From assembly GCA_944470555.2 (NCBI GenBank), contig OX104127.1, forward strand, positions 162,064,499-162,128,498: a stretch of 64,000 nucleotides of DNA, given 5' to 3'. The notes beneath the pieces are model-generated. The model was not told the origin of the DNA, searched no databases, and was given only the letters and a program-made list of their open reading frames with translations. Positions 22,854-60,708 of the stretch are shown here, piece after piece (positions within the stretch are counted from its first letter, which is position 1; every line of letters starts with the position of its first letter). This DNA comes from Heterobilharzia americana (Eukaryota; Platyhelminthes; Trematoda; Strigeidida; Schistosomatidae). Position numbers and translations under genes: made by a program.

Positions 22854-23146
22854 TTACTATTTATAATTCCAAGTTGTTATTCATCGTAGACTGACTGACA
22901 TCAGTTGAGGAACAAAGGAAACCTGGGAGCACTGGACAGCTGTTTCGCCCAACTAGTTTGGGACTCCTCAGCAGTGCGCACCCACGACCCCCGCCAGGGA
23001 TCGAACCGGCGACCTTCAGGTTCCGCGGCCAGCGCGTTGCTATTGAGCCGCTGGGTTAGAATCCGACTAATGTCAGTCTACGATGAATAACAACTTGGAA
23101 TATTTCCAAATCTCCACAACTCCCTCAAAATTACTATTTCTAAATT
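22854..23146. mobile_element. Beta hammerhead element, foldback form, with target duplication
   Basis: Body at about 22869-23130. The ends are inverted copies of each other (22869-22905 against 23063-23100, the GTTATTCATCGTAGACTGAC motif). Inside, on the minus strand, sit a tRNA-like head (B box GGTTCGATCCC, A box TGGCTCAATAG-like, 22990-23060) and then an intact hammerhead. The right end adds the family tail CAAATCTCCACAAC...CTCAAAA. Flanks TTACTATTTATAA at 22854 and TTACTATTTCTAA at 23131 form a 13-bp duplication with one mismatch. Such a duplication points to target-primed retroposition. Confidence 0.8.
22929..22979 (-). ncRNA. Hammerhead ribozyme, beta type, intact core
   Basis: On the minus strand: stem I strand GCACTG, core CTGAGGA (22965-22971), stem II closed by GTCCC...GGGC, GAAA (22943-22946), a palindromic stem III ACAGCTGT, cleavage triplet GTC (22935-22937), and stem I partner CAGTGC. 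All core residues fit the hammerhead consensus CUGANGA...GAAA...NUH. Stem I pairs over six base pairs. Stem II contains a G-U pair. Type I topology (open at stem I), as in schistosome S-alpha ribozymes. Activity is predicted, not shown. Confidence 0.85.
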
Positions 23147-23840
23147 TGTTTGTATGTTTCCATATGAAACCTTATCAATGTTCATTCACAAACATGTTGA
23201 AGGTTTCAGGAACATTCGAAGGTGACTGCATATATTTTTAATGTTGTTTGTGCGCACTCCAGTTGTTGGACCAAGTAAGTGGTTTTTGATGAGGTCAACC
23301 CAGTCCACATAACAACATGTGAAATTTCCAAGTATCTGTATATATTGTAATACCCAATTTTACCCACTTTTCGGTATCTGATAGGATAAATCCATCCTAT
23401 CTACCCTTCATCCACCGAAAATGTTCTCCCTTCATATTTTAAGCCTACATACTAAGAATCTACGATTTGTACCTAACTTCCTAGTTCCATTTAATCTATC
23501 TTTCTGGGTTATATTTACCTTCGGTGCGTTAGATATGCAGTCCATTACGACACTATATTCACTGTTTAGACTCCTCATAAACATTACGTCTCTTCTCAAA
23601 TGATCGGCAATGTAGTTTTTTATCATAACTCATCAAAAGCTTACACAGCCTCAACAACACGCAAGTGAACGTAGCGAATGACCTGGAATGAGGCATTTAC
23701 AAACTGAATGACCATCCTCAAGGTTTCCTATCAATACAGTTTAATACTACCAACAACAGCATTAAAGGTAATCATGTGAAGTAGCTATATAGCTTTCGAT
23801 TAGTGTCCAGTCAAAAAGGCAGAATGAACACTAAACGGAA
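23147..23840. other. No recognised gene
   Basis: A 60-codon plus frame and a 64-codon minus frame overlap at 23421-23626. The minus-strand one (DHLRRDVMFMRSLNSEYSVV) has no family that I can name. No repeat was matched. Confidence 0.4.
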
Positions 23841-23846
23841 CATTAG

Positions 23847-24078
23847 TTTAGTGATGAGTATATGCAAACAGTATTAGTTCCAGATGAACTTCAACGTGAT
23901 TTGGATAACGTGAGTAGTATGTCACCTCCGTTTCACCAGAATATTATAAGCTTTATCTTAACCAATAAGCACCAACTGAACATACGTCAATTGTAGGTCG
24001 GTAAACCAAATGACAAAATGCACAGGATTCGAAAAGATGCGATCAATCGATTTTTTGTTGTTGCATGTAATATAAACA
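23847..24078 (-). repeat. LTR-like direct repeat, 3' side of gypsy element
   Basis: Ordered match to 27797-28009, including CAACGTGATTTGGATAACG, GTCAATTGTAGGTCGGTAAA, GACAAAATGCACAGGATTCG and GATCAATCGATTTTT. The two copies flank the gypsy gag-pol remnant in direct orientation, as LTRs would. Indels near the ends make the boundary approximate. Confidence 0.65.
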
Positions 24079-24233
24079 AAATTAGTTCTAATGTTACTGT
24101 GATATTGTTAAACATGGTGTTTTTCAATAGACTTGAATAAATTTTGAGGGGGTTGTGGAGATTTGGAAATATTTCAAGTTGTTATTCATCGTAGACTGAC
24201 TGACATCAGTTGGAGGAACAAAGGAAACCTGGG

Positions 24234-24282
24234 AACACTGGACAGCTGTTTCGTCCTAGTATGAGACTCCTCAGCAGTGCGC
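24234..24282 (-). ncRNA. Hammerhead ribozyme, beta type, intact core
   Basis: Minus strand: stem I GCACTG, core CTGAGGA (24268-24274), stem II GTCT with GGAC (one U-G pair), GAAA (24249-24252), stem III ACAGCTGT, triplet GTC (24241-24243), stem I partner CAGTGT. All catalytic positions are kept. It follows the tRNA-like promoter block by about 15 bp, the same distance as in the other copies. Confidence 0.85.
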
Positions 24283-24295
24283 ACTCACGACCCCA

Positions 24296-24369
24296 CCAGC
24301 AGGGATCGAACCCGCGACTTTCAGGTTCCGCGACCAGCGCGTTACCATTGAGCCACTGGGTCAGAATCC
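24296..24369 (-). promoter_or_regulatory. tRNA-like Pol III box region of beta element
   Basis: A box TGGCTCAATGG and B box GGGTTCGATCCC are spaced as in tRNA genes, on the minus strand. The block lacks a full tRNA cloverleaf with a closing acceptor stem, so it is a SINE-type internal promoter, not a tRNA gene. Confidence 0.7.
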
Positions 24370-24669
24370 AATGCTCCATATTTCCAACTTCTGTTAGCTC
24401 ACGATATAGCGCAAACCGCCACCCAATGTCATCGTTGAGTATTTGTCCTCACGGCCATCAGGCTTTGACTCCACCGGTCACGACTTGTCATTGGAACTCG
24501 GGAATACTTCTCGAAGCTAGTCACCAACGAGCACTAGTTCAATTAAATTTTGAGGGGGTTGTGGAGATTTGGAAATATTTCAAGTTGTTATTCATCGAAG
24601 ACTGACATCATTTGTTCCTCCAACTGATATCAGTCTTCGATGAATAACAACTTGAAAGACTTGAATAAA

Positions 24670-25060: not shown

Positions 25061-25061
25061 A

Positions 25062-25810: not shown

Positions 25811-26398
25811 CTAATGCTTAGCAACCATTTTGACTGAAATATCTGGTAGTAGTACAGCAACAGACCAGCGAGTAAATCGATCGATACATGGACGTAGGTA
25901 GTTGAAACCGTTGGAAGTAAGCAGTGGTTTAACTATATCTACATCAATATGCCTTAATCTGGCTGGTGGAATCGGAAACTGACAGATGGAGCGTTGATGT
26001 GATGATTCACTTTTTCTTTTTGACATGTAAGACGTTCGTATTCACCATTTTACATCAAGATTTATATTTGACCACACCAATCTCCTATTTATCAGCTTCA
26101 TAGTGGCATTGATCCCAGGGTGCGATAAGTAATGCAGTTTGTCAAATATGATGCGTCTTATTGCTTTAAGAAGGAATGGACGAAGTTTTTCAGTGGATGT
26201 ATCACATCTGACTCTGACGGTATTAAATTGAATTTCAGGGAAAACTAAAGAAGTCGTTGTCGAAGACACTAACTTCTCCAATTTCAAATCATCTTTCTGT
26301 AGCTGAGATAAGCGTCGGTAATGAATGTCTGGATAACAATGCATCAGCAACTTCATTCTTGGTACCTTTCGTGTGTTGAATATCAGAAGTGATTGCAT
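25811..26398 (-). pseudogene. Gypsy integrase, HHCC and first part of DDE core
   Basis: The frame at 26042-26398 ends in FDKLHYLSHPGINATMKLIN and RRLVWSNINLDVKW, the His-His part of the integrase zinc-binding domain (H-x4-H type, with the following Cys pair lost over a frameshift). The frame at 25811-26026 has RLRHIDVDIVKPLL and DRFTRWSVAVLLPD, the first catalytic Asp region of the DDE core. In gypsy elements integrase inserts the cDNA. This copy is broken into at least two frames. Confidence 0.75.
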
Positions 26399-26600
26399 TA
26401 GTAACTGCTAACTTCATGGATGTTGAGTCAGTGACCATACCAATAAAGCAGTTTGTACTATTTGAATTAATCAGTGTGTGTCTCTTCAGATCGACTAACA
26501 GGTCATACTGGCATTGAAAATCAATTCTAGTGATCGGTTGTCGCATATCTGTCAGTATAAATGACCAAGAGCAGGTATCGAGGCCAAAATCCACTATCAT
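26289..26600 (-). pseudogene. Gypsy RT linker joined to RNase H end (RT core deleted)
   Basis: The 103-codon frame begins with MIVDFGLDTCSWSFI and ITRIDFQCQYDLLVDLKRHTL, the protease-RT linker of gypsy elements. It passes within about 40 residues to IQHTKGTKNEVADALLSRH, the very end of RNase H. The whole RT palm, with its catalytic aspartates, is absent. The join is in frame, so a single internal deletion is likely. Confidence 0.7.
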
Positions 26601-28984: not shown

Positions 28985-29255
28985 CTTAGTTGTAGCTGGC
29001 AGAAAAACCCAGTACGTGCGTTTTGTCCCATTTGGGGCTCGTCAACTGAATGTACCAGCAACTCAATGCGAAGTGACTTTGTTCCCAGTGAGACTCGAAC
29101 CTCTTGCCCATCGCTTCAAACGTCAAGGAGTTATCCACTATGCCGTGGAGGCACGATAGCCACTTCTTGTACAACGCGTATTGGTTATTACTATTTATTG
29201 GCATACTCTTTATTCTCCGTTATTTTACTGGATCGAATTGTTCGACCCCGGTGAA
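28985..29255 (-). mobile_element. S-alpha (Sm-alpha) SINE with dead hammerhead, minus copy of a divergent pair
   Basis: Minus strand from 29255: body end (AATTCGATCCAGTAAAATAA), AAATAGTAATAACC, a GTTGTACAAGAAGTGGC head, tRNA-like block (A box CGGCATAGTGG, B box GGTTCGAGTCTC at 29085-29160), then a hammerhead at 28999-29060. The ribozyme core reads TTGACGA (first C lost) and AAAA in place of GAAA, so it should be inactive. Stem II GCCCC...GGGAC is kept. It pairs with the plus-strand copy starting at 29270. Confidence 0.8.
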
Positions 29256-29269
29256 TTAGAAGTAAATCA

Positions 29270-29595
29270 GCAAATATTAATAACCAGTACTCGTTGTACA
29301 TGAAGTGGTTATCGTGCCTCCAAGGCATAGTGGATAACGCCTTGGTGTTTGAAGCGATGGGTACGAGGTTCCAGTCTCAGTGAGGACAACACTCCGCACT
29401 GAGGTGCAGGTACATCCAGCTGGCGGGTCCCAAATGGGATGAAACGCGCGTCCTAGATTCTTCTACTAGCCACAAGCAAGCAGATCATCATAACTGACAT
29501 CCAGGCAATATCAAGGTATCTACATAGGAGCTCATATGCCAATAGAGGTTGAACAATTCAATTCAATAAAACAACAGAGAATTACAAGGCATGTC
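29270..29595 (+). mobile_element. S-alpha SINE with hammerhead, plus copy of a divergent pair
   Basis: A nearly complete unit: GTACTCGTTGTACATGAAG head, tRNA-like block (A box AGGCATAGTGG, B box GGTTCCAGTCTC, 29320-29385), hammerhead at 29406-29466, then the 3' body through CATATGCCAATAGAGG to TGTCAATAAATAA. The core is damaged: CTGGCGG (29420-29426) in place of CTGANGA. GAAA (29441-29444) and GTC (29450-29452) are intact. Stem I keeps five of six pairs. Confidence 0.85.
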
Positions 29596-29599
29596 AATA

Positions 29600-30094
29600 A
29601 ATAACAGTGAGGTATTATTTAGCTAGAAAATATTATCTCACTTGTTACAGGATTCATTGTAAAACTCTTTTCCATACCAATGACAGTATCTTAAAGTGAA
29701 TGACCAGACTAATATGGCTAAGCGACATTTAATCGAAAAAAATAAACAGTTTTATATTTTGTGAACAAAATTATTGGTTACTATACAGAATAGGTATCAT
29801 TCTAATGCAAACAAAACAAAAATGTACAGTATAAAGTTATCTCACTTAATGAACCTGTGTTGTTTCAGTCTATTCTTTTCAGTACTTCCCGCATAATTTG
29901 TGAAAGGGCCTATATTTTTTAGATAATACATTTACAACAATAAGTATCTGACACATTTCTGAGAACCTGTTGAACATGATGTCCACAACCAACTTAAAAT
30001 TAATAAACTAACTAGCCCAAGTTATCTTACCACATCATCCAGAAGTTATTGTATAGTTGGTTCTTTAATGTAAATGTTAAAAATATACGTCAGA
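29600..30094. other. AT-rich sequence, nothing recognised
   Basis: Short gap between the S-alpha pair and the beta composite; no frames or repeats seen. Confidence 0.5.
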
Positions 30095-30161
30095 CAAATG
30101 TAATTTAAAGTTGTTATTCATCGTAGACTGACATCAGTTGGAGGAACAGACGAAATCTGGG

Positions 30162-30211
30162 AGCATTCGACAGCTGTTTCGTCCAACTAGTATAGGACCC
30201 CTCAGCAGTGC
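30162..30211 (-). ncRNA. Hammerhead-like, beta type, one core change
   Basis: Core reads CTGAGGG: the last A of CUGANGA is G. Stem II GTCC...GGAC, GAAA, stem III ACAGCTGT and GTC are kept, but stem I loses two of six pairs. Probably inactive. It is the inverted partner of the intact ribozyme at 30421. Confidence 0.75.
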
Positions 30212-30420
30212 GCACCCAAGAACCCGCCAGCCAGGGGTCGAATGCGAGATATACAGGTTCCGTGGTCAACACGTTACCATTGAGACACTGGATCAGAATC
30301 CAGTCGTACATATTTCCAACTTCTGTTAGCTCACGATATAGAGCAACCGCCACCCAATGTCATCTTTGAGTAACTGTCCTCATGACCATCAGGCTTTGCC
30401 CCAAACAGTGGGTCGTGGGT

Positions 30421-30472
30421 GCGCACTGCTGAGGAGTCCCATACTAGTTGGACGAAACAGCTGTCCAGTGCT
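30421..30472 (+). ncRNA. Hammerhead ribozyme, beta type, intact core
   Basis: Stem I GCACTG (30423-30428), core CTGAGGA (30429-30435), stem II GTCC/GGAC with a ten-base loop, GAAA (30454-30457), stem III palindrome ACAGCTGT, cleavage triplet GTC (30463-30465), stem I partner CAGTGC (30466-30471). Every required core base is present and stem I pairs perfectly over six bases. This is the cleanest ribozyme in the window. Confidence 0.88.
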
Positions 30473-30814
30473 CCCAGGTTTCCTTTGTTCCTCCAACTGA
30501 TGTCAGTCAGTCTACGATGAATAACAACTTGAAATATTTCCAAATCCCCACAACTCCCTCAAAATTCAAATATAATTTAATTATTTAAGTCGATAAAAAA
30601 CTTTAAACTATGTAACTGTTCACTACAAATATGCCTAACAGTTGACTGACTAAAAGCCAATTTCATAAAAATACTCTACAATACAAAGATTTTCATTTAT
30701 TTTAATGACAAATCTAATGTGATAACCGGAAAAATGCAACCAAAGCAAATATGTCATTTTGGTAATTTCTCATCAAACTATACAACTAGTCAACAAGAAC
30801 TGGTGCTAAATCAC

Positions 30815-31945
30815 GCTCCTGTCCACCCCAAGCAAAATGTTATGCCGCATCATCTTGGAGAGACTAAAGGATGCGCTGGATTCAAAACTACGACCCCAAC
30901 AGTCTGGCTGGCTTCAGGAAAAACAAATCATGTGCCGACCAAATTGCAACGCTTTGCATCATCATAGAACAGAGTATAGAATGGCAGTTAACTCAACTCT
31001 CTACCCCAACTTCATCAACTTTGAAAAGACCTTTGACAACATCGACCGAGAAGTGATTTGGCAGGCAGCTGCTTCAACACTATGGAATACCACAAACCTT
31101 TATCAATCTCATTCAACAACTATATGAAGACGCCGCATGCCAAGTAATTCACAATGGGAAGCTCAGTAATGCCTTTGAAGTGAAGACAGGAGTGAAACAA
31201 GGTTGCCTACTATCCCCCATGATATTCCTGATTGTGGTTGACTGGACTGGACCATGCAGCAAACAGTGGGGAGGGAGAAGAGGGGGATACTCTGGACTGC
31301 GGAAAAGAACCTAGAAGATCTGGATTTTGCCGATGACTTGTGCCTGGTGTCACACAAACTCGAAGATCTACAGGCAAAAACTAACAAGTTGACAGAAGAG
31401 GCAAGGCAGCGAAGACGGGACTTTCTTCGAGTCAACGTAGAAAAGATAGTGGTGATACCCAACCAACACAACCACCACCACCAACAACAGGCTCCAATCA
31501 CCATCAACAGGAGAAACTTAAAGGAAGTTGTCTCTTTCACCTACCTGACTAAACAGCATCGTTTCAACTACAGGCGGCACAAGCACAGAAGAGGACGTCA
31601 AAGCCAAGACTGGAAAAGCAAGACTGGCATTCATTAGACTGAAACCAGAGTGCATATTTGCTTCACTGCACTCAGCATGTGGAAAAAGATGGAGACTTTC
31701 AACACCAACGTCAAGTCAGTGCTCCTGTATGGTACAGAAACTTGGCGAGTCACGAAACGCATTTCCAACAAAATACAGACATTCCTCAATAACTACCTGC
31801 GCTGTCTTGTTACTGAAGATCAGATGGCCAGAAATAATAAGCAACAAGGAACTGTGGCTGGCAACCAGCCAACCAAGAACCTATCGCTGAAGAAATCTGC
31901 AGAAGGAAGTGGAGATGGATTAAGCATGCACTGAGAAGGCCGAAA
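30815..31945 (+). mobile_element. RTE-clade LINE, RT middle and C-terminal fragment
   Basis: Read across frames: MLCRIILERLKDALDSKLRP, then AGFRKNKSCADQIATL, NFINFEKTFDNIDREVIW (RT finger and first palm Asp region), KTGVKQGCLLSPMIF and LDFADDLCLVSHKLEDLQAK (FADD catalytic pair at 31326-31337). It continues into the C-terminal region with ETWRVTKRISNKIQTFLNN. Both ends are truncated: no endonuclease, and the 3' tail is missing after RRP near 31945. Frameshifts near 31060, 31120 and 31540 break it. It is the best preserved RT catalytic region here. Confidence 0.85.
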
Positions 31946-32749: not shown

Positions 32750-35700
32750 TATTTGTCCCCTGGGTACTTAGTGAAACATAGGGTTTCAGTAGCACGTCGC
32801 CATTTCACTCTCTTCTCCACAGTCCCTCCAACCTGGCTCCACCAATGCCCACAAGCTATCATTTCATCTTCACATGATCTCCTCCATATCAACGTCACCT
32901 CGGATGACCAACTAGTCGTTTCCCATTCAACTTCCATTCGACACCATGACCCGGTCTGGTGCGTGATGTCACCGAATGGTTTTCTAAATGTATTCCCAAT
33001 CCAGTCCATCTCCACCTTCTTCTTCTCCTGCAAATTTGTTGGGTGATGGGTTCATGGTTGGTTTATTGTCAGGACAGAGTGAGTCCCACCTTGCTTATTC
33101 CTTCTGGTCATCTGATCTTCAACATCGAGTGAGCGTAGACAGTAGCTGTTGATGAGTGACTGTAGTTTGTTGGAAATACTTTTCATGACGTACCAAGCAT
33201 CTCAACCATCACACTGAAGCACTAAATTCCTTCACTGAATTACTGTCGAAAATCCCGATCTTGTTGTTTGTGCTGAGTGGAGCAGATCTCAACACCGATT
33301 TCAGATTACTGAAAGACTATCTTGCCTTTCCGATCCCGTCTGGCTATGACATCCTCATCCGTACCTGCAACGCCTGTAGTTGAAACGATGATTGCTAGCT
33401 TGGTGGGTAGGTGGAACAGACTACTACGCATAGATTCCTCCCGTTCATGGTGATCGCTGCTTATTCTTGTCCACGGTGTGGTTGGTTGGACATATTCACC
33501 ACCTCTGTCTTCTCTACGTAAACACGAAGGAAGTTCGGTCTTCACTGTCTCGTCTCGCCTCTTCTGTCAACTTGTTGATTTTTACCAGTAGATCTTCGAG
33601 TTTGTGAGACAAGTCATGAGACATACTTCATCATCGGCGAAATACAAATCTTCTAGTGTCTTTTCATCAGCCAAACAGCATACGCCAATCTTCTCACAGC
33701 TCCTCTCAGCTGTTTCTTGCATGATCCAGTCCAGTCAGGTTAACCACAATCAGGAAAATGATCGATGATAGTAGGCAGCAGCCCTCTCTTGTCATACTCC
33801 TGTCTTCACTCCACTTCACTTCACTTCACTTCACTTCAATAGCGTCACTGAGCTTTCCATTGTAAATCATTCGGCATGTAGCATCATATAGCATATAGCA
33901 GAAAGCTGAAGTTGAATGAGGTTGATAGACGTTTGTATCACTAAAACCATAGTGTTGAAGCAACTGATAGTCAAATTAATTCTCGGTCGACTCTGTCAAA
34001 GACCCTTTCAACGTTGATGAAGTTGGAGTGAGGTAGAGAATTGACTGACATTCTATACCCTGTTGTATGATGATGCATAGTGTTGCGTCGCGCTGTGTTG
34101 AGTTGCAATTTGATCCACACATGATTCGTTCTCCCTGAAGCCAGCCAGCCAGCCTGTTTCGGTCGTATTTTGAATGCGGAGCAGTTTTAAACTTCTCCAG
34201 GATGATGAGGTGTATTTTTTCTTTAAGGTGGACAGGGTGGAGTATGATTCCTCACCAGTTCTTGCAAGAAATTAGTTCTCTCTTCTTTCGCAGTTTGACA
34301 AGGTAGCTTGTCTTCCATTCAAACACCAGGTACCTCCCCTTCCCTTCCCTGCCTGCCTTCCTTCCTGCCTTCCAATCCCTGTGCAACAGTGATGTAAGTG
34401 TGTCCGCTGTTGTCTCTGTGTCTGTTTTCAGTGCTCTTGGTGTAACACCATCTGGTACTACTACTTTCCCAGATTTCAACAGCTTTATGGCGTTCATGAC
34501 TTCGGCTTTTGTCGGAGGGCTTGTGTTCACTGATTTTTCTGTGATTGGGTTGCTGGTGGTATTTCTGGATGTGTTGGAGGTGGTGATGGTAATTGATTCA
34601 AGAGTTTTTTGAAGTGGTCAGTCCATCGTTTCCTTAGTTTCTCCTCTTTGGCGGTAACTAGGTTTCATTCACCATCTTTCATTGATTTCATCTGCTTTGG
34701 TCTCTTCCTAGATAGTAACCTGGTTATTTCATATAATGTTTTCAGGTCTGTGTCTGTGCTGCATGCAGCCTGTTCTGATTCGCTGGCGAGTGTGTCGTAG
34801 AAGTGCCCCTTGTCTTTCTGCACACCTTTCTTTACCTCTTTATCCAGTGATTTATACGTTGTCTGTACTCTCTCGAGATTGTAATGAAGTCGATCTGATT
34901 TCTAGTGTAGTGAGATCCATACCGCTCTCTCAATATCCCTATGTTTGTGAGCACTGTACCCGACCGAAAAATTGTCGAATGCGCAGATGTCTACAAACAG
35001 TTATACATTCTCCTTCATTTCACCAAATGCTTATCGATCCATGATGAATTCTCTTCCTGTGTTCTCCACTCCCACTTTCGCATTCATATCAACCCACCTA
35101 TTAGAATTTCGATGTCACCAACTGGAGTGGTGTCTTGTCCTGTACTGATTACAGTTGTCTGTAGAATCCCTCCTTCTTCTCTTCACCTGCATTATTTGTG
35201 GGTGCATAGTGTAGCATAGCGTAGCCTAGTGTAGTGTAGTGTAGTGTAGTGTAGCATAGCATAGTATCATTGTGACTCTCCCTCCTTTCGAGTTGAATCT
35301 TGCTGTGATGATGGTGATCCTGAGGATGAGATTGGTTCCCACTGTATGAGAGAGAGAGAGACAGAGACAGAGAGAGCGTTCGATGCTGTTGGGGACATGA
35401 TGATGGCCACTGGACAACTCAGTGTGCTGTTCTCGTGGTTGTCGTCTGTGTGACAATATTGGAGTAGATAATTGACTCTTCACTAGTTGACAGTTTGGAG
35501 AGTCCACTTCTATTCCATCTGCAGATTCTTCACAGATTCCTTCTCTTTTGCAATCTGGGCAGTCTTGCTAAGTTTAAACATATTGCGGACATTCCATATC
35601 CGCACGTTTACTTTCTCTTTTACCGAGAGAGAGAAGACACATCGGCCAATTGGCTTCCCTATGGCTTTTACCAACCGACGTCATTTCATCTTTCCGATTC

Positions 35701-35860
35701 CAGTGAGGAATAGGTTCGTTTTTATTTTTATATTTTCTTTGTGCTTTGAAGTTTCTTTAGCGGTTGGATTGGTTTTATAAAGGTAGGTTTGCTTGTTGTA
35801 TACCCAACCTTCCCGGTTAGTAACTAGTGAACCAGTTAACTAGGCGATGTTCTACACATT
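32750..35860 (-). mobile_element. RTE-clade LINE, full-length but dead (left of pair IR2)
   Basis: Minus strand from 35860: 5' UTR, endonuclease region (35200-35530), internal pentamer run GTAGT near 35225-35265, and the RT N-terminus MNTSPPTKAEVMNAIKLLKSG at 34530. It then has a SCKNW segment, a CADQIATL-like region near 34110, the catalytic segment (FADD spread over a frameshift near 33640), and the C-terminus QEKKKVEMDWIGNTFRKPFG at about 33030, to the 3' end at 32755. An insertion KAGRKAGREGKGRYLV replaces the normal RT linker, as in the right partner. About 3.1 kb, with many stops. Confidence 0.82.
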
Positions 35861-37967: not shown

Positions 37968-38562
<595 letters not shown>

Positions 38563-38564
38563 AT

Positions 38565-39478
38565 ATCCATTTTCATTCCATTTAACAAGACAATCAAGGA
38601 AAAACTTCATCATTTATATGCAGTTTTCCTTCAGAAAATAAACTCACTAGGTCAATTGTTGAACACTTAGTTTCACTGGTCGACTAAAAGACAAAATTGT
38701 TCAATAAGGTTTGTCTAACCACAAGAAACTAAGATTGTAATTTAAAACTTCTATCTTCATGGCTGATGACCTTGAGTGGTGATATCGATTTTCGCTGGTT
38801 CCATCGGTTAAAAGTTAGCTGTCTAACTAAATGAATTAGAGCTTTATCTAATTATTTATTGATCGGAAGTCAACTATATCACATGAAGACAATTATAAAT
38901 GTAACGGTAAAAAAAATACAGACTGTTTACGTATCATGAGTAGTCAACTATATGAAGTCTTCAAGTCCATCACTATAGATAGCTGTCGGTAAACAGTAGT
39001 TGATAAATATCCTGATTATCACTTGTTATTTCACATGGAGAATTAGCACTAAGGAGAACAGTTTACCTTATTATTATAAATATAATGACTGTTATTATTA
39101 CCATTATTATTGTGTGAAATTACTGCCTAAATTAACATGATTATGGGTTTTTTGTTTCCGCCATCGTTATGAAAATTAAATGTTTCTACTACAATGATGC
39201 TTCAACCTCCATGATGTAACTACGTTCTTGTAGGCATCTTCCTGATCACATCATGACATCCCACAGTTTTCTTACCAATCCATTATTATTATTGTTGTTG
39301 TAATTACTTTGACAAAGTTGTATTACTCGGTAGCATGATCTTTATCTCAAACACAGCTTCATAAGTATAATCAAATGAATGGTAAACTTAGTTGGTCATT
39401 ATTCTTCTACAATGGAAAATTATGCATTCTTAGTCTTGGCAAAATATTCTCTTGTCAATACGCCCTTTCAACCTCGCC
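38565..39478. other. AT-rich sequence, nothing recognised
   Basis: Contains short ATT-rich stretches near 39070-39115 and 39280-39300. No gene or repeat family match. Confidence 0.5.
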
Positions 39479-40112
39479 TGGCTAAATAGTTCACTAGTTA
39501 CTAACCGGTCCTAAGCCAGGATAAAAAGGGAAGTTTGGGCATACGGCTAGCAAACCGCCAGCCCCTTCCCCCCAAGAAAACCAATCCAATTACTAAAGAA
39601 ACTTCAAAACGCAAAGAATATATAAAAATAAAAACTAACCTATTCCTCACTGGAATCGGAAAGATGAAATGACGCCGGTTGGTGAAAGCCATAGGGAAGC
39701 AAGTCAGCCGATGTATCTTATCTCTCTCGACGAAAGTGAAAATAAGAATAGAAACATGGGATATCCGCACCGTGTATGAACCTAGCAAGACTGGCTAGAA
39801 TGCAAAGGAGATGAGGAGGTACGGCATGGAAGTGGTAGGAATCTGTGAATAATCTGCAGATGGAATAGAATTGGACTCTCCAAACTGTCAACTACTGAGG
39901 AGTCAATTATCTACTCCAATATTGTCACACAGACGACAACCACGAGAACAGCACACTGAGTTCTCCAGTGGCCATCATCATGTCCCCAACAGCATCGAAC
40001 GCTCTCTCTTCTCTCTCTCTCTCTCATACAGTGGGAACCAATCTCATCCTCAGGATCACCATCATGACAGCAAGATTCAACTCGAAAGGAGGGAGAGTCA
40101 CAATGATACAAT

Positions 40113-40190
40113 GCTACGCTACACTACACTACACTACACTACACTACACTACACTACACTACACTACACTACACTACATTAGGCTACACT
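40113..40190. repeat. (ACACT)n pentamer array inside RTE
   Basis: About 15 tandem copies, reading TLHYTTLHYTT. The same site holds only about 6-8 units in the partner copies at 35225-35265 and 45507-45550, and almost none in IR1. The site is therefore an expansion-prone spot within the element. Confidence 0.9.
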
Positions 40191-41019
40191 ATGCACCTAC
40201 AAATAATGCAGGTGAAGAGAAGAAGGAGGGATTCTACAGACAACTGCAATCAGTACAGGACAAGACACCACTCCAGTTGATGACATCAAAATTGTAATTG
40301 GTGGGGTGATATGAATGTGAAAGTGGGAGTGGAGAACACAGGAAGAGAATTCATCATGGATCGAGAAGCATTTGGTGAAATGAAGGAGAATGTATAACTG
40401 TTTGTAGACATCTGCGCATTCGACAATTTTTCGGTTGGGTACAGTGCTCACAAACACAGGGATATTGAGAGAGCGGTATGGATTTCACTACACTAGAATT
40501 CAGATCGATTTCATTACAATCTCGAGAGAGTACAGACAACGTATAAATCACTGGATAAAGAGGTAAAGAAAGGTGTGCAGAAAGACAAGGGGCACTTCTA
40601 CGACACACTCGCCAGCGAATCAGAACAGGCTGCATGCAGCACAGACACAGACCTGAAAACATTATATGAAATAACCAGGTTACTATCTAGGAAGAGACCA
40701 AAGCAGATGAAATCAATGAAAGATGGTGAATGAAACCTAGTTACCGCCAAAGAGGAGAAACTAAGGAAACGATGGACTGACCACTTCAAAAAACTCTTGA
40801 ATCAATTACCATCACCACCTCCAACACATCCAGAAATACCACCAGCAACCCAATCACAGAAAAATCAGTGAACACAAGCCCTCCGACAAAAGCCGAAGTC
40901 ATGAACGCCATAAAGCTGTTGAAATCTGGGAAAGTAGTAGTACCAGATGGTGTTACACCAAGAGCACTGAAAACAGACACAGAGACAACAGCGGACACAC
41001 TTACATCACTGTTGCACAG

Positions 41020-43905: not shown

Positions 43906-44880
43906 CTATTATAACAGAATGAAATTACAAAGATCAATAAATACAACTGCTTATTGATCTAAATTCTGTTTTTGATAAACTAGACAACAAATGTTCATTT
44001 TGATGAGACAACCACTACAAGTTGAAAAACTCACAACGTTTCTTACTAATAGTTCATTCCTGATGTATATCATATCATGCCTATGCGTACACAGAGAGGA
44101 ATAATTTGTTCACAGTATATATATACCATAAATTACATACAACCATGGAACAAGGTTATTAGGTTAGAAGATTTAGAGATACACTTTAGTAATCAACTAA
44201 CTTTCACTTTTCAATAGAGGAGAGGAAACAACAATTAATATAGTATGAGAAGAAAGTAAAATTGGTTCTGAAAGAGTATTGTGAAATTGTCTCGGTGTAA
44301 TTAGGTATCTTTTTTGAAAGTGAATGAATAACAGACCAGAATATGATTGTTTTCGTTGTTAATAATGTGTATATTTTCATAATGATCATTTTAGATAGCT
44401 ATAGTTTAACAAATTTATATTGTGGATACAGGATAATGGTTGAAAGTGCAATGAAAATTTGTGTTACGGTAGGATTTGAACCAAAGACCCTCAGTTATAG
44501 GTCGGTTACTTTAAAAACAAACCTATGAGACCCAGTTGTTAAGCAAATATACATAATATATAAATGATTTATTCCAAGCCATTATTTTGTAAAACAGCAT
44601 GTGGCAGGAAACGACAACTGTTCATTATTGTAAAATTGATTCTTTAATATGCCTTTCGTCATATAATATACAAGCTAAATAATGTGGTATGATTGAATTT
44701 GTGTTTGTAGTTGTACTTGCCTAAGGCTTAAAGTATTTGGTTCTTGTTTGCCTTGAGGAGAAACAGCGAGAAAGATAAGTATATGCTTATGGTCTGATAA
44801 GATATTTACATCCTCCTTTACTTGGTGTATCATAATATGAATTACAATTATCGAAAGTAACTCATTTCCTAACCTCACCT
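43906..44880. other. No gene; weak tRNA-like SINE remnant near 44450-44545
   Basis: On the minus strand 44450-44545 has a B box GGTTCAAATCC and a CCCAGT-type start without a clear A box, so it is a remnant at best. The rest is AT-rich and unrecognised. Confidence 0.35.
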
Positions 44881-44884
44881 GGTT

Positions 44885-46632
44885 AACTAGATCACTAGTT
44901 ACTAGCTGGTCCTAAGCCCGGGTAAAGAGGGAAGGTTGGGCATAAGACTAGCAACCCTACCTTTATAAAACCAATCCAACCGCTACAGAAACTTCAAGGC
45001 ACCGACAAAATAACAAAAATCAAAACAAACTTATTCCTCGCTGGAATCGGAGAGAAGAAATGACGAAAAGCCATAGGGAAGCCAATTGGCCAACGTATCT
45101 TCTCTCTCTCGATGAAAGCAAAAGTCAGCATGGGGACATGGAATGCGAACACCATGTTTGAAGCTGGCTGGCAAGGCTGACCAGATGGCAAAAGAGATGA
45201 GAAGGCATAGCATAGAAGTGGTAGAATCTGTGAAGAATCTACAGATCGAATGGAATTGGACTCTCCAAACTGTCAACTACTGAGGAGTCAATTATCTACT
45301 CCAATATTGTCACACAGACGACAACCACGAGAACAGCACACTGAGTTGTCCAGTGACCATCATCATGTCCCCAACAGCATCGAACGCTCTCTCTGTCTCT
45401 GTCTCTCTCTCTCTCATACAGTGGGAACCAATCTCCTCCTCCAGGATCACCATCATCACAGCAAGATTCAACTCGAAAGGAGGGAGAGTCACAATGATAC
45501 AATGCAACACTACACTACACTACACTACACCACACTAGGCTACACTATGCTACACTATGCACCTACAAATAATGCAGGTGAAGAGAAGAAGGAGGGATTC
45601 TACAGACAACTGTAATCAGTACAGGACAAGACACCACTCCAGTTGGTGACATCGAAATTCTAATAGGTGGGTGATATGAATGCGAAAGTGGGAGTGGAGA
45701 ACACAGAAGAGAATTCATCATGGATCGAGAAGCATTCGTGAAATGAAGGAGAATGTAGAACTGTTTGCAGACATCTGCGCATTCAACGATTTGGTGATTG
45801 GAGGCACTGTGTTCAACTACAAGGATATTCACAATGTAGCGATATGGATTCTATCAGGCAGACACACCAGAAATCAGATCGACTTCATTTCGATGTGAAG
45901 AAAGTGGAGAAGTAGCCTACTGAACACAAGATCAAGAAGGGGAGCGGATGTAGTTTCACATCATTTACTAACCTTTGCAAGGAACCTTCCAAATCAAGTC
46001 GAAAGCCTTCAAAGAATTTGGTAATAGACGACAGTTGAAGTTCAACACCCAGAACTGAAACTGAAGGACGAAACTACAATGAAAATCATTCCAGGCTTAC
46101 ATTAACCTGAAACCAGTCTGGAGGTCTTCTGCACTCAGTATTAAGCGTGAACAACATCCAGACTTTCAACAGTGATGCTAGTCAAGTCAGTGTTTCTGTA
46201 TGAATCAGAGACTTGGGGCGTTAGTAAAAGCATTTCCAACAAACTACAGATATTCATCAACAACTGCCTACGCTGCTATTTACTGAAGCTCAGATGGTCA
46301 GAAAGAATCAGCAACAAGGAACTGTGGCTGGCAACCGACCAACCAAGAACCTATCACTTAACAAATATGCAGAAGAAAGTGGATATGGATTGGGCACACT
46401 CTGAGAAGGCCGGTTGAGGACATCACGTGCCAGGCCAGTTGCTCGAGTGGAACCCAGATGGGAAAGGACAAGTTGAACGTCTGAGGTGAGGCTGACATGG
46501 AGGAGATAGTGTGAGGAAGAAATGAGAGCTTCTGAGCTATCGTGGAGCTAGATTCAAAAGATAGCAGAGAACAGAGTGGGATGGAGGCGTGCTACTGAAA
46601 CCCTATGTTCCATTAGGAACCCAAGGGACAAA
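44885..46632 (+). mobile_element. RTE-clade LINE with internal deletion of RT
   Basis: 5' UTR and endonuclease part as in the full-length copies (RMGTWNANTMFEAGW-like near 45130; MELDSPNCQLLRSQLSTPI at 45250; a pentamer run at 45507-45550; SRSIREMKENVELFADICAF at 45735-45790). The sequence then jumps near 46085 straight to the C-terminal region (NLKPVWRSSALS, then MMLVKSVFLYESETWGVSK from 46172) and the 3' end with an AATAATAACAATAAT tail. The entire RT domain is missing. A deleted but end-complete copy of this kind could have moved in trans. Confidence 0.82.
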
Positions 46633-54784: not shown

Positions 54785-55035
54785 ACGTTGGTTATGGCTG
54801 GCAGAAGAGTGGAGGACGTGCGTTTCTTCCCATTTGGGACTCGTGAGCTGGATGTACCTGCACCCTAGTGAGTGATGTTGTTCCCACTGAGACTCGAACC
54901 TCGTACCCATTGCTGGGAACACCAAGGCGTTATCCACTATGCCACGGAAGAAAAGTAGCCACTCCTTGTACAACGGGTAGTAGTTATGACTAGTTATTGA
55001 CATATTTGTTATTCTCCGTTGTTTTTGTTGGATCA
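54785..55035 (-). mobile_element. S-alpha SINE with damaged hammerhead, minus copy of a divergent pair
   Basis: Minus strand: body end, GTTGTACAAGGAGTGGC head, tRNA-like block (A box TGGCATAGTGG, B box GGTTCGAGTCTC, 54888-54945), then a hammerhead at 54798-54863. The core is CTCACGA (G5 to C), GAAA and GTC are kept, stem II GTCC...GGGA is weakened. G5 is essential in hammerheads, so this copy should be inactive. Confidence 0.8.
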
Positions 55036-55262
55036 AACTACATCACTCACTGAAGTGCAGGCACATCCAGCTGACGAGTCCCAAATAGGACGAAACGCGC
55101 GTCCTCCATTCTTCTGCTAGCCACAACCAACCAAATGATGACAATTAACATTCAGGCGATATCAAGGCATCCGTATAGGAGCTCATATGCCAATAGAGGT
55201 GGAACAATTCGATCCAATAAAACAACGGAGAATAACAAGTATGTCAATAAATAGTAATAGTA
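55036..55262 (+). mobile_element. S-alpha SINE, hammerhead plus 3' body, plus copy of a divergent pair
   Basis: Starts abruptly 20 bp before the ribozyme, without a tRNA-like head, directly joined to the minus copy. The hammerhead is followed by the S-alpha body (CATATGCCAATAGAGG, AACAATTCGATCCAATAAAA) to TGTCAATAAATAG. The composite of an inverted partial unit and a full unit is the same plan as the beta elements. Confidence 0.85.
55057..55117 (+). ncRNA. Hammerhead ribozyme, S-alpha type, intact core, weak stem I
   Basis: Core CTGACGA (55071-55077), stem II GTCC/GGAC (55078-55091), GAAA (55092-55095), stem III palindrome ACGCGCGT, triplet GTC (55101-55103). All core residues fit. The outer stem I pair GCAG/CTGC is kept, but the inner six-base stem ATCCAG/CTCCAT has two C-C mismatches. 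Activity may therefore be reduced or lost. Confidence 0.8.
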
Positions 55263-56225: not shown

Positions 56226-56621
56226 AATCAGAGGATACTGAGGGAGTTATGGGGATTTGGAAATATTTCAAGTTGCTATTCACCGTTGACTTGCATCAGT
56301 TGGAGGAACAAAGGAAACCTAGAACCACTGCTCTTCAACAGTGAGCACATACGACCGACGGTTTGGGACAAAGCCTGATGTCAGTATACGATGAATAACA
56401 ACTTAAAATATTTCCAAATTCCCACAACTCCCTCAAAATTCAATTGAACTGGTGCTCATTAATGACTAGCTTCGAGAAGTATTCCCGAAGTTCTAATGAA
56501 AGTTGTGACCAGTGGAGTCAAGCCTGATGGTCATGAGGACAGTTACTCAACGATGACATTGGGTGGCGGTTGCGCTATATCGTGAGCTAAGAAAATTTGA
56601 AAATATGGAGCATTGGATTGT

Positions 56622-56690
56622 GACCCAGTGGCTCAATGGCAACGCGCTGACCGCGGAACCTGAGGGTCGCGGGTTCGATCCCTGGTGGTG
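56622..56690 (+). promoter_or_regulatory. tRNA-like Pol III box region of beta element
   Basis: A box TGGCTCAATGG (56627-56637) and B box GGGTTCGATCCC (56670-56681) on the plus strand, 43 bp apart from start to start, a tRNA-like spacing. The best preserved internal promoter among the beta copies. Confidence 0.75.
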
Positions 56691-56706
56691 TGGGGTAGTG
56701 GGTGCA

Positions 56707-56750
56707 CACTGCTGAGGAGTCCCATAGTAGGACGAAACAGCTGTCCAGTG
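56707..56750 (+). ncRNA. Hammerhead ribozyme, beta type, intact core
   Basis: Stem I CACTG (56707-56711), core CTGAGGA (56712-56718), stem II GTCC/GGAC with a seven-base loop, GAAA (56734-56737), stem III ACAGCTGT, triplet GTC (56743-56745), partner CAGTG. Five perfect stem I pairs; the sixth is lost to an A for G. It lies just downstream of an intact Pol III-like promoter in the same unit, so this unit is the best candidate for a self-cleaving transcript. Confidence 0.87.
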
Positions 56751-56824
56751 CTCCTAAGTTTCCTTTGTTCCTCCAACTGATATCAGTCTATGATGAATAA
56801 CAACTTGAAATCAGAGGATACATC

Positions 56825-57665: not shown

Positions 57666-57689
57666 TATTATTACTTATTAGTAGTACTC

Positions 57690-58035
57690 ATCATGGATTG
57701 ACGTCAGTTGGGGAACCATTGAGAATCTGGGAGCACTGGACACCTGTTTCGTCCTAGTATGGGACTCCTCGGCAGTACGCACCCACGACCCGGCCAGGGG
57801 TCGAACTCAGGACCTCCAGGCTTCACGGCGAACACGTTAACCATTCAGCCACTGGGTCGGTCTCCACTGGTTCACAATTCCCAACTTCTGTCAATTCACG
57901 ATATAGCGCGACTGTCACCCAGGGTCTTCACTTAGCATCCACTTCACTTCCAACTGCTTGACCCCACAGGTCACGGCTTCTCATTACAACTTCCTAACAT
58001 CCATCTGGAAGCAAGTCACTAATGAGCAGAGCACT
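57690..58035 (-). mobile_element. tRNA-like SINE with dead hammerhead (gamma type), best copy
   Basis: Minus strand: long 5' region (CTTCACTTCC...CGATATAGC mirrored), A box TGGCTGAATGG, B box GAGTTCGACCCC (57790-57865), then a hammerhead at 57732-57780 with core CCGAGGA (U4 to C), stem II GTCC/GGAC, GAAA, stem III ACAGGTGT and GTC, and the tail ending AATCCATGATGAG. Stem I is partly kept. The single core change should inactivate it. This family shares the ribozyme with beta but has a different head and tail. Confidence 0.75.
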
Positions 58036-58074
58036 AGAGAGTAATGTATTTTTCAGATGAATGGGGATTTTTAA

Positions 58075-58260
58075 TTTAGAAGTAGTATTCATCATGGACT
58101 GAATCAGTTGGGGAACCATTGAAAATCTGTGAGCAATGGACAGCTGTTTCGTCCTAGTATGGGACTCCCCAACAGAATGCGCCCCGAGTTCGAACCCTAG
58201 CCGAGTCGTGGGTGAACATGAGACTAGCAATCGACCTGGTATTCTGTCACTGGCAATACA
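58075..58260 (-). mobile_element. Gamma-type SINE, truncated
   Basis: Same tail (ATTCATCATGGACTGA) and hammerhead (58131-58183), then truncated in the tRNA-like head after GAGTTCGAACCC. The core is destroyed (CTGTTGGGGA), although stem II, GAAA and GTC survive. It follows the first gamma copy in the same orientation. Confidence 0.65.
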
Positions 58261-58264
58261 CGCT

Positions 58265-60465
58265 GTACATCGAAATGTATGCATCACTTATTTGATAAAT
58301 GCATTCAAAGATACTTTATTTATTTATCAGAATGTATGCAACCATTCACTATAACTTTCAACATCATTCAAGTATCTAAGTAATAAAAGTTCTAATTGTA
58401 AAGCTTCAACTTATAATATCAATCATAAAAGAAGTTTCTTTGATCAGTTAGTCATCGATTTGTACAACTTTTCAATCATATTGAACATCTCTGCTTGAAA
58501 AAAAGTCATGTAAATGCTTGTTACGAAAGCTATACTAAATTCTCGTGGCCGCCGCTAAACTCACACTACTCTATGCACCTCCTGCCACAACGTACCTATC
58601 TACAGACTAGAAGAAAATGTGTTAGAAGTTAGTCATTACAAGGTAGTTGAGTTGAGTTAAAATGCGTTGTTAGAAAGAAAAGAAAAACAGATGTAAACTA
58701 CATATTTGTTCTAAATCTTGGTCAAAATTTGTGTTATTGGTATTTAACTAGTCCATTATTAACCAAATTCTAAGAATGCAGTTTTCCTAAATAAAAAGTG
58801 GCAGTTATTGATCCAGTAAAATAACTACATTAACAGCTATGTCGTTAGTAAACTTGCGCCTGTTTCTGTAGTACTAATTTTTTATCTTCCCAGTTTTGTC
58901 TACTATGCCTTCTCATTAGTATACTGACGATAACTCAGTGATTAGTATCCATTGTCGTGTGTCAAAGTGTTGTTGGTGTATTAGCGACAGTTTCCTAGTT
59001 CCTTATTCAGCAAAAATGCCAAGTCGAGCATTATTCGATCACTTTATATACATCAGCTCAATAAATAAGTGTTCAAAACGTCTATCTTCTTTCAGTTGAA
59101 CTGCTACGGCTATCAGAATATGTAGCTTCGGCCAGTCTTAATCGGTAGGTTATCAGGAAACTCATATAGATTATGTAAGGGTTATTCATTCTGATCGAGT
59201 ACTTCCTCATATCTGTTTGTCTATGTTAACACCATTCTCTGTAGAATTATCAGTATGCGATGATATTCTGGCATCTACTTGGAATTTAACCAATCTCTTT
59301 TTGATACGACAGATTATAAAACGTCTCAGCTACTGAGTCAATTCAAAATCTGTTAACATAGATTTACTAATGATAAAGTGATGTTTGTCATACAAAACTT
59401 TTAAGCATTATGTTGAAGCTTATTTGATTATTCAGGGTGACACGAGCCAAACGCTTTGTTTATCCGAGATGATCTGTTTCTTGTCATCAGTATTTTATTT
59501 GGATATTCAGATTTCCACTCTTCAGGATTTGTTCAAATAAATTTAGAACACTTTCCCCATGTCTATATGCTTACAGACGAGTCTGTATACGAAAAGATGA
59601 GAACAGTTATCTGCTAGGCACTTTTGAAAGTTTTAGATGATATACTTAGTCAGTGTCACGTAGCCATATCTCAAATGTCGCTACCGATACTTTATCCCGA
59701 CCATTTTTATCTGCTATCTCCATATCACAAAGAGATTCACCAAATGAATTAAGTCTACCTTCAGATGCATTTCTGGTTGTATTGTCGATAAGAGTACATC
59801 TTGAATAACTGAATTTCTCCAAGTTCTCTTAGACACGATAATAATGCTGAATGGTGTACTTAATTACAGCCAAGTAGTTCTTCTGTTTAACCTGAATGTA
59901 ATATAATTTCGAAATAGGTTTTCCTGTATATTGTTATTATTAATGGTTGTAAGCAGATGATTAAATCTGAGTTTAACTGTTGCTGCCGTTAGTCCGATAA
60001 ATCTAATTTCTCTACTAAGTGTTATTTCATAGAATACCAACCCTCCTAATAGCTATGTTGATCCCAGATTGGACACTTTTACTTCTTTAGTCAAACAAAC
60101 TATCATTCATCACACTTCTTGTATGTAAGGGCTGATTACGTAACACAGGACTTCTGTGTACAGACTTGTTTTGTGGTAGATATCTGGAAGACACTGAATG
60201 ATAAATGCTCCAATATAACTGTGTCCTGCTTCAGATTCGGTTAACGTTGATACTGATGAAAGATGTTCTATAGTATTTTGCTGGCAAATCGTTCGATTAC
60301 ACTGAGGATTCTGGTTCTGATGTCACCATCTACATGGTACTACAGATCGTGTAAGAAAACAAAACATGTGAATCGGTGTTTGGACTTACAACATAACTTG
60401 AACTGTTCACAACTTCACATAATAGATTTGTTGTAATGAATAACTTGGTTTCACAAAATAATTCA
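58265..60465. other. Longest repeat-free stretch, no gene recognised
   Basis: About 2.2 kb without a match to any family seen elsewhere here and without frames above 60 codons. A faint minus-strand resemblance to LINE C-terminal text (DGDIRTRI near 60315-60335) is too short to support a call. Confidence 0.45.
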
Positions 60466-60469
60466 AACT

Positions 60470-60708
60470 GTATAACAATATAATTTTAGGGGGGTTGTGG
60501 AGATTTGGAAATATTTCAAGTTGTTATTCATCGTAGACTGACATCAGTCGGAGGAACAAAGGAAACCTGGGATCACTAAACAGCTGTTTTGTTCAACTAG
60601 TATGGGACTCCTCAGCAGTAACCGGTGGAATCAAAGCCTGATGGTCATGAGGACAGTTACTCAACGATGACATTAGGTGGCGGTTGCGCTATATCGTGTA
60701 TAACAATA
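60470..60708. mobile_element. Beta element, truncated, with 11-bp target duplication
   Basis: GTATAACAATA at 60470-60480 and again at 60698-60708, identical. The body 60481-60697 holds the minus-strand tail and a hammerhead (60571-60619), joined near 60620 to a plus-strand head piece (CAAAGCCTGATGGTCATGAG). The ribozyme is dead: AAAA for GAAA and GTT for GTC; the core CTGAGGA is kept. A further instance of the inverted join, cut short at one end. Confidence 0.8.

What the first reader, a model, noticed from the sequence alone, without database searches (positions are those of the whole stretch)
22854..60708. A second hammerhead family (beta) in target-duplication-bounded retroposons
Besides S-alpha, a distinct dispersed family carries a hammerhead with core CTGAGGA, stem II GTCC/GGAC, GAAA, stem III ACAGCTGT and GTC. 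Four copies are intact (22929, 24234, 30421, 56707), several others decayed. Five insertions show direct duplications read in the sequence: 13 bp (12/13 or better) at 22854/23131, 13 bp perfect at 24129/24657, 12/13 at 30095/30567, 11 bp perfect at 56228/56811 and 60470/60698. Long duplications imply target-primed retroposition. I do not know whether this family has been named.
Basis: partly seen in the sequence, partly recalled or inferred. Interest (0 to 1): 0.87.

Follow-up and report, generated by a model that had tools for sequence, protein, structure and literature searches.

The report
Self-cutting tRNA-like jumping elements, Penelope-style insertions
A family of short jumping DNA elements in what looks like a blood-fluke genome carries a self-cutting RNA next to a tRNA-like start signal, and the way its copies end suggests that Penelope-type enzymes insert them, which would bear on an open question about what moves such elements.

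Summary
Rfam calls five non-S-alpha type I hammerheads at gathering score; four have intact core letters. The five reported target duplications are real, 12-14 bp, far above chance. No sequence shared with S-alpha was found by BLAST.

A tRNA-like segment lies directly upstream of the hammerhead (likely, not proven). Each of the five bounded insertions is a head-to-head fold-back. And 9 of 10 insertion ends fall at two places of the 406-nt unit, 64-69 or 96-103 nt after the ribozyme cut (ends set by eye). The G-free, AC-rich stretch between them is an optional "tail" of about 30 nt, on one of the two ends in the four copies that have both kinds of end. Optional 30-40 bp tails on inverted terminal copies are a published mark of Penelope-like elements.

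Most likely mechanism: both target nicks prime a Penelope-type reverse transcriptase on tandem hammerhead RNA, once on two different RNAs. The family is probably the W25.2-W27.2 group of S. mansoni (unit size and ribozyme agree; sequence not compared), so family and ribozyme are probably known; the Penelope-style ends are new to my searches. Only one window was examined: the genome search did not complete.

The parts
22867..23130 (-). beta element b22k: inverted 3' region with tail at its 5' side, then tRNA-like, hammerhead, 3' region without tail
   Evidence: BLAST of the unit; sequence
22854..22866 (.). target duplication of b22k, copy 1 (12/13)
23131..23143 (.). target duplication of b22k, copy 2
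22929..22977 (-). type I hammerhead of b22k, core letters intact
   Evidence: Rfam RF00163, 43.0 bits; core check
22985..23057 (-). tRNA-like segment of b22k; the forward arm begins a few bases upstream of it
   Evidence: alignment; end placed by eye
24142..24656 (-). beta element b24k: inverted 3' region without tail, left direct partial 3' region, body, tRNA-like, hammerhead, 3' region with tail
24129..24141 (.). target duplication of b24k, copy 1 (13/13)
24657..24669 (.). target duplication of b24k, copy 2
24235..24280 (-). type I hammerhead of b24k, core letters intact
   Evidence: 42.2 bits
24288..24362 (-). tRNA-like segment of b24k with A box TGGCTCAATGG and B box GGTTCGATCCC
   Evidence: end placed by eye
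24142..24170 (-). tail of b24k (unit 71-99), G-free, on the 3' end
30109..30566 (+). beta element b30k: long inverted arm (decayed hammerhead and tRNA-like in reverse) joined head to head to a forward arm with hammerhead and tail
30095..30108 (.). target duplication of b30k, copy 1 (13/14)
30567..30580 (.). target duplication of b30k, copy 2
30423..30471 (+). type I hammerhead of b30k, core letters intact
   Evidence: 43.1 bits
30163..30211 (-). decayed hammerhead in the inverted arm of b30k
   Evidence: 26.5 bits, below gathering 34
56239..56808 (+). beta element b56k: inverted b30k-type arm with tail, left direct partial 3' region, body, tRNA-like, hammerhead, 3' region without tail
56226..56238 (.). 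target duplication of b56k, copy 1 (13/13)
56809..56821 (.). target duplication of b56k, copy 2
56706..56751 (+). type I hammerhead of b56k, core letters intact
   Evidence: 40.3 bits
56622..56698 (+). tRNA-like segment of b56k
   Evidence: Rfam lists no tRNA match here; end placed by eye
60481..60696 (-). beta element b60k: inverted arm whose outer end is at unit 247, then decayed hammerhead and 3' region with tail
60469..60480 (.). target duplication of b60k, copy 1 (12/12)
60697..60708 (.). target duplication of b60k, copy 2
57685..58182 (-). older direct tandem dimer of the family; predicted cut sites 58139 and 57739 lie 400 bp apart
57733..57778 (-). hammerhead of the dimer's second unit (core CCGAGGA, so probably inactive)
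   Evidence: 38.0 bits
57786..57858 (-). tRNA-like segment of the dimer's second unit, 73 nt
   Evidence: Rfam tRNA 16.5 bits, model 1-71, below gathering 29; relaxed ARAGORN

Best explanation
The family is a non-autonomous, tRNA-headed retroelement (a tRNA-SINE of the animal retrozyme kind). Its 400-406 nt unit reads: tRNA-like pol III promoter, minimal type I hammerhead, about 100 nt of 3' region holding two reverse-transcription start sites, and a body. Probable life cycle: (1) pol III transcribes from the tRNA-like head; the b24k-derived unit has no TTTT stop, so tandem copies would give tandem RNA (inferred). (2) The hammerhead can cut RNA to unit length, or leave it uncut (inferred). (3) A Penelope-type protein, supplied in trans, nicks both strands of an AT-rich target 12-14 bp apart (duplication shown; enzyme inferred). 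(4) Both target ends prime reverse transcription inside the 3' region, at the short site (unit 64-69) or the long site (96-103); the stretch of about 30 nt between them is the optional tail (end positions shown, priming inferred). (5) The two cDNAs, made from one tandem RNA or from two different RNAs, are joined head to head (structure shown; a five-base overlap at the b56k junction is read by eye).
For: Two-site ends: with ends set by eye, 9 of 10 ends of the five duplication-bounded copies lie in two windows of 8 nt; 2000 random sets of 10 ends never exceeded 6. In the 4 copies that have both kinds of end, one is short and one long, facing outward. Unit 71-104: A13 C12 T9 G0. Published pattern: an optional 30-40 bp tail equals the stretch between two RT start sites, RT starts in an AC-rich element downstream of the hammerhead cut, the endonuclease prefers AT-rich DNA, both strands are cleaved and extended (PMC11167929, passages); a 31-bp tail on one of the inverted pLTRs, an adjacent inverted pLTR and a TSD (PMC3846280, passages). 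Two templates: the inverted arm of b56k aligns to b30k (132/146) across b30k's fusion point and does not align to b24k there. Tandem template: b24k and b56k read from the body into a preceding unit's 3' region; a direct dimer with 400-bp cut spacing exists. tRNA head: A plus B box in the unit, against 2 of 20000 shuffles (pattern written after seeing the sequence); ARAGORN at 80% threshold calls the consensus (tRNA-Pro, cgg) and 2 of 7 copies, shuffles 0-9 of 1000. A Penelope-like family (Perere-10) is reported from S. mansoni (PMC8293314, passages).
Against: Five bounded copies from one window; end windows chosen after the fact. One short and one long end in 4 of 4 has a chance of 1/16 if ends were drawn independently and evenly, and the anole work saw no difference in start site between strands. 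One of 10 ends (b60k, 5' side) is at unit 247. No Penelope gene was seen, but only 10 of the 88 ORF pieces of 85 aa or more were scanned with Pfam: 2 of 10 matched (an integrase zinc-binding domain, and RVT_1 below its cut-off); no Penelope sequence was compared. The stretch 56-106 alone is not predicted to fold (0.0 kcal/mol), unlike the anole stem-loop. Default ARAGORN finds no tRNA in the window, Rfam's one tRNA match of three stretches tried is below gathering, and 5 of 7 single copies fail relaxed ARAGORN. Minimum-energy folds of the four core-intact hammerheads do not show the catalytic form: in three the core CUG pairs with stem III; z-scores -1.2 to +0.7. S-alpha copies here are fold-backs too, but with end zones about 125 nt apart, which does not fit a 30-40 bp tail.
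Confidence: 0.6

Rival explanations
1. A LINE-mobilised tRNA-SINE whose fold-backs come from twin priming or self-priming of the cDNA after ordinary target-primed reverse transcription.
For: 12-14 bp duplications and a tRNA-like head fit ordinary SINEs; an RT fragment is present (RVT_1 at 31057-31314, 25.6 bits, below its cut-off of 29.6); in b24k the inverted and left direct arms share variants absent from the right arm, as self-priming would give.
Against: Twin priming inverts without duplicating the 3' region (recalled), whereas here the inverted arm repeats it. In 4 of 5 copies the outer end of the inverted arm is itself one of the two 3' sites. In b56k the inverted arm comes from another template than the forward arm.
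Confidence: 0.22
2. The family is itself a decayed or miniature Penelope-like element (solo pLTR repeats), with the tRNA-like stretch acquired by chance or only superficially similar.
For: Tail, inverted terminal copies, partial tandems and a minimal hammerhead with very short stem III are Penelope traits.
Against: The tRNA-like segment recurs: of 7 copies compared, 5 have both GACCCAG and RGTTCGAYCCC, one has only the second, one neither intact. The body was not searched for coding remnants.
Confidence: 0.12
3. A DNA-mediated fold-back or MITE-like element with terminal inverted repeats.
For: Head-to-head inverted ends flanked by duplications.
Against: The two ends differ by the tail in the 4 two-sided copies, duplication length varies from 12 to 14, arm lengths and junctions differ among the five copies, and arms cross the unit junction in b24k and b56k.
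Confidence: 0.04

Closest known systems
W-element families W25.2, W26.2, W27.2 of S. mansoni (PMC8490949; sections 7 and 11 and passages seen)
   Same: Units of 415-428, 399-402 and 403 bp with minimal type I hammerheads; 25,162-55,303 autosomal copies each, mostly parts; one TSD noted for W25.2; three of five tested hammerheads from W25.2/W36.2 variants cleaved in vitro.
   Different: Sequences not compared here. The held text has 0 occurrences of tRNA and of retrozyme and 2 of Penelope; I saw no two-site ends, tail or fold-back structure in the parts read.
S-alpha (Sm-alpha) SINE, W36.2
   Same: tRNA-headed, hammerhead-bearing, dispersed SINE; the copies at 54788-55259 and 28986-29603 are also head-to-head fold-backs.
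   Different: No BLAST-level similarity; reported as tRNA-Gln derived (PMC2770079, passages); 333-335 bp unit; two end zones about 24-28 and 150 nt after the cut (partly by eye); no significant duplication at 3 of 3 copies tested.
Animal non-LTR retrozymes (PMC7229834, parts 1-4 of 6 read; PMC7761336 and PMC4918200, passages)
   Same: Units of 150-450 bp with type I hammerhead, no coding, TSDs longer than 4 bp; Penelope elements proposed as a candidate mobiliser; a tRNA noted for schistosome repeats.
   Different: PMC7761336 states that the repeats show no motif that tells which autonomous element moves them; here the insertion ends may.
Penelope-like elements (PMC3846280, PMC11167929, passages)
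   Same: Inverted terminal copies, partial tandems, optional 30-40 bp tail, TSD, hammerhead, AC-rich start region, AT-rich targets.
   Different: No room for an RT and GIY-YIG ORF; tRNA-like head; unit of about 400 nt; tail not predicted to fold.

Membership tests
Type I hammerhead (Rfam RF00163) | Matches the covariance model above gathering score | tested here: met
   5 beta copies, 38.0-43.1 bits against 34; 3 more beta copies below it
Type I hammerhead (Rfam RF00163) | Self-cleavage at GUC | not testable with these tools
   Needs in-vitro transcription; minimum-energy folds of four copies do not show the catalytic form
tRNA-derived SINE | tRNA-like pol III promoter (A and B boxes, tRNA fold) | tested here: inconclusive
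   A+B boxes 2 of 20000 shuffles; ARAGORN at 80% on the consensus and 2 of 7 copies; Rfam tRNA 16.5 bits, below gathering 29, in one of three stretches; default ARAGORN none
tRNA-derived SINE | Target-site duplications | tested here: met
   5 of 5 named copies; 5 further loci not tested
Animal non-LTR retrozyme | Tandem units of 150-450 bp with type I hammerhead | tested here: met
   400-bp dimer at 57685-58182 (both hammerheads with a changed core); partial tandems b24k, b56k
Animal non-LTR retrozyme | Circular RNA of unit length | not testable with these tools
   No RNA data
Penelope-mobilised element | Optional 30-40 bp tail on one of two inverted terminal copies | tested here: met
   4 of 5 bounded copies have one tailed and one tailless end; the fifth (b60k) has a tailed end and an end at unit 247
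Penelope-mobilised element | RT start in an AC-rich stem-loop | tested here: inconclusive
   AC-rich yes, stem-loop not predicted
Penelope-like element proper | RT plus GIY-YIG ORF | tested here: not met
   A 400-406 nt unit has no room for it
S-alpha | Sequence similarity to S-alpha | tested here: not met
   No cross hits by BLAST
W25.2/W26.2/W27.2 | Sequence identity with the W-element | not testable with these tools
   Sequences not held; unit length and hammerhead agree

The most novel reading that the evidence does not exclude
A tRNA-promoted ribozyme SINE is mobilised in trans by a Penelope-type reverse transcriptase that starts on both cut target strands at two fixed sites and can use two different RNA molecules in one insertion. 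This would be genomic evidence for which enzyme moves animal retrozymes, and a class of SINE partnered with Penelope instead of LINEs. One arm (the inverted arm of b56k) even lacks 29 nt of hammerhead ending exactly at the cut site, as if copied from a cleaved RNA (best single-gap model; one case).
Probability: 0.5. Interest if true: 0.8.

Novelty: new variant of a known kind. Interest (0 to 1): 0.62.

Why it matters
Hammerhead-bearing repeats are widespread in animals, yet the enzyme that spreads them is not known: PMC7229834 names Penelope elements as a strong candidate, and PMC7761336 states that the repeats show no motif that tells. Insertion ends that carry the Penelope tail signature would turn this into a question that can be counted in any schistosome assembly, and tested by offering the RNA to a purified Penelope protein.

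Tried and rejected
Beta as an S-alpha variant: rejected (no cross hits). MITE or fold-back DNA transposon: disfavoured (end asymmetry, variable arms). Isotype of the tRNA-like head: the consensus reads Pro(cgg), single copies Leu, Ser or undetermined, so not settled. S. japonicum is reported to hold about 650 tRNA-Pro-CGG pseudogenes (PMC2770079, passage), a possible link only. tRNA detection: ARAGORN at default found none in the window and at 100% none in the four sequences tried; 80% was chosen after that, and 50% gave conflicting calls on both strands. Rfam found no tRNA in two of three stretches. For the tRNA comparison I kept 7 copies that have a recognisable start; b47k, b58k and the minus copy at 61.1k, aligned, were dropped because the first half of the segment is missing or does not align. 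RNA folding as support for the hammerhead failed. S-alpha duplications: none significant at 3 of 3 copies. Related sequence elsewhere: the 21-base ribozyme pattern has 0 exact matches in genome contigs and viral contigs, as expected for a eukaryotic repeat. Two papers, Cervera 2014 and Lunse 2017, are not held, so Penelope hammerheads described there were not compared. The five further beta-like loci (3.7k, 47k, 57.7-58.2k, 61.1k, 61.4k) were not tested for duplications and are not in the end counts. Negative print claim: the listings (up to 30, 10, 20, 20, 10 and 12 rows shown) showed no paper on Penelope-type ends of hammerhead SINEs; I judged by titles, abstract starts and the passages read, in a library without most subscription papers.


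Full report
What is there. Rfam gives 8 type I hammerheads at gathering score in the window, 3 of them S-alpha and 5 of the family called beta; further ones of both families fall below it. BLAST of a beta unit against the window finds ten loci: 3.7k, 22.9k, 24.2k, 30.1k, 47.2k, 56.2k, 57.7-58.2k, 60.5k, 61.1k and 61.4k. None coincides with an S-alpha copy, and two S-alpha elements used as queries find no beta locus. Four of 8 beta hammerheads checked have all core letters.

Target duplications. Element boundaries were taken from homology between copies, then junctions were searched. All five named loci show 12-14 bp matches (scores 10, 13, 11, 13, 12). Of 2998 random pairs, 2 reach 10 and none reaches 11; the best of 56 mismatched flank pairs is 8. 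The duplicated DNA is AT-rich (52 of 65, window 62%, P 0.0017). Three S-alpha copies tested the same way show nothing significant.

The unit. Counting from the first base after the predicted cut: 3' region 1-103, body from 104 to about 284, tRNA-like segment, then hammerhead up to 406. There is no TTTT in this b24k-derived unit. The tRNA-like segment is about 73-77 nt (by eye). Of 7 copies compared, 5 begin GACCCAG and 6 have RGTTCGAYCCC; three other copies were left out of that comparison because its first half is missing or does not align. A box plus B box arose in 2 of 20000 shuffles of the unit, with a pattern written after seeing the sequence. ARAGORN at 80% of its threshold calls the consensus (tRNA-Pro, cgg) and 2 of 7 single copies; shuffles give a call in 0-9 of 1000. 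At the default it finds none. Rfam's tRNA model matches one copy end to end at 16.5 bits, below its gathering score of 29, and does not match two others. I treat the tRNA origin as likely, not shown. In b22k the forward arm begins a few bases upstream of this segment, where a pol III transcript would begin (inference).

Tandem units. At 57685-58182 two units lie head to tail with predicted cut sites 400 bp apart; both hammerheads there have a changed core. b24k and b56k also run from the body into the 3' region of a preceding unit. RNA of more than one unit, with the hammerhead uncut, must have been copied in these cases, or a circle more than once round. In b24k the left and right 3' regions differ at a base and by a four-base insertion, which favours a tandem RNA of unlike units over a single circle; self-primed copying of an erroneous second lap is not excluded.

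Fold-back insertions. Each of the five bounded copies has an inverted arm on its 5' side. Outer ends in unit coordinates, with duplications removed by eye: b22k 5' 99, 3' 68; b24k 5' 68, 3' 99-103; b30k 5' 65, 3' 101; b56k 5' 96, 3' 68; b60k 5' 247, 3' 99-103. Overlap of a few bases with the target blurs each. With one value per end, nine of ten lie in two windows of 8 nt; 2000 random sets reached at most 6. The stretch 71-104 has no G. The four copies with both kinds of end have one with and one without this tail, on either side (b22k and b56k: tail on the inverted end; b24k and b30k: tail on the 3' end).

What it works like. Penelope-like elements are described with an inverted terminal copy, a TSD, and a 31-bp tail optionally on one of the inverted pLTRs (PMC3846280, passages). 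The anole Penelope protein cleaves and extends both strands, prefers AT-rich DNA and starts in an AC-rich stem-loop; the 30-40 bp tail is the stretch between its two start sites, and genomic insertion ends fall on them (PMC11167929, passages). The beta ends repeat this pattern. Points that do not fit: that work saw no strand difference in start site, so 'one of each' is not predicted by it; the beta tail region alone is not predicted to fold; b60k's 5' end is elsewhere; and S-alpha, which also makes fold-backs here, has its end zones about 125 nt apart.

Two templates in one insertion. The inverted arm of b56k carries the fusion of reversed body to tRNA end that is seen otherwise in b30k, and aligns to b30k over 132 of 146 positions; against b24k the corresponding part does not align. 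Its forward arm is of the ordinary type. So the two arms probably come from two RNAs. In that inverted arm the hammerhead lacks 29 bases that end exactly at the cut position: this is the best of the single-gap models tried, the next best being shifted by one base. It is one case, and it could be a plain deletion.

The ribozyme. Core letters are intact in four copies, but their minimum-energy folds are not the catalytic form. Stem III is a self-complementary ACAGCTGT, so action as a dimer, as published for short-stem hammerheads, is plausible (for the amphibian case).

Known or not. The hammerhead families W25.2, W26.2 and W27.2 of S. mansoni have units of 415-428, 399-402 and 403 bp and many autosomal pieces; of five candidates from W25.2 and W36.2 variants three cleaved in vitro, and a TSD was noted for one W25.2 copy (PMC8490949, sections 7 and 11 and passages). 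Beta is probably of this group, by size and ribozyme only. A tRNA in schistosome hammerhead repeats is in print for S-alpha and for schistosome repeats in general (PMC2770079; PMC4918200). What I did not find in print, by the searches, is the Penelope-type end structure in hammerhead SINEs.

Verdict. Observation confirmed; mechanism extended from plain target-primed retroposition to Penelope-style double-ended insertion, at 0.6. The scale is small (five insertions, one window); a genome-wide count would decide it.

Noticed in passing
44866-44939 (+), 39465-39538 (+): Sub-threshold twister-P1 ribozyme matches (40.7 and 23.0 bits, gathering 67.2), both at the start of a shared repeat (39470-40429 / 44871-45792). 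PMC7761336 mentions truncated twisters at 5' ends of RTE elements.
   Followed up: no
6197-10201 and 12105-16121: Two 4.0-kb inverted copies, 99.4% identical, with about 1.9 kb between: recent inverted duplication, insertion pair or assembly fold.
   Followed up: no
32769-35776 and 39577-42669: A second pair of large inverted copies (92-97%); the sequence between them includes a 594-bp TACT repeat at 37968-38561.
   Followed up: no
28986-29603 and 54788-55259: S-alpha copies are also head-to-head fold-backs with two end zones (about 24-28 and 150 nt after the cut), so double-ended insertion may not be special to beta.
   Followed up: partly
b24k and b56k left direct arms (24142-24656, 56239-56808): Forward arms of two separate insertions stop at the same base, unit position 33 by eye, at an imperfect palindrome (ACTGATGTCAGT): a strong RT stop or an RNA 5' end.
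   Followed up: no
26042-26407 (-): Piece of a retroelement with an integrase zinc-binding domain (PF17921), probably of an LTR retrotransposon.
   Followed up: no
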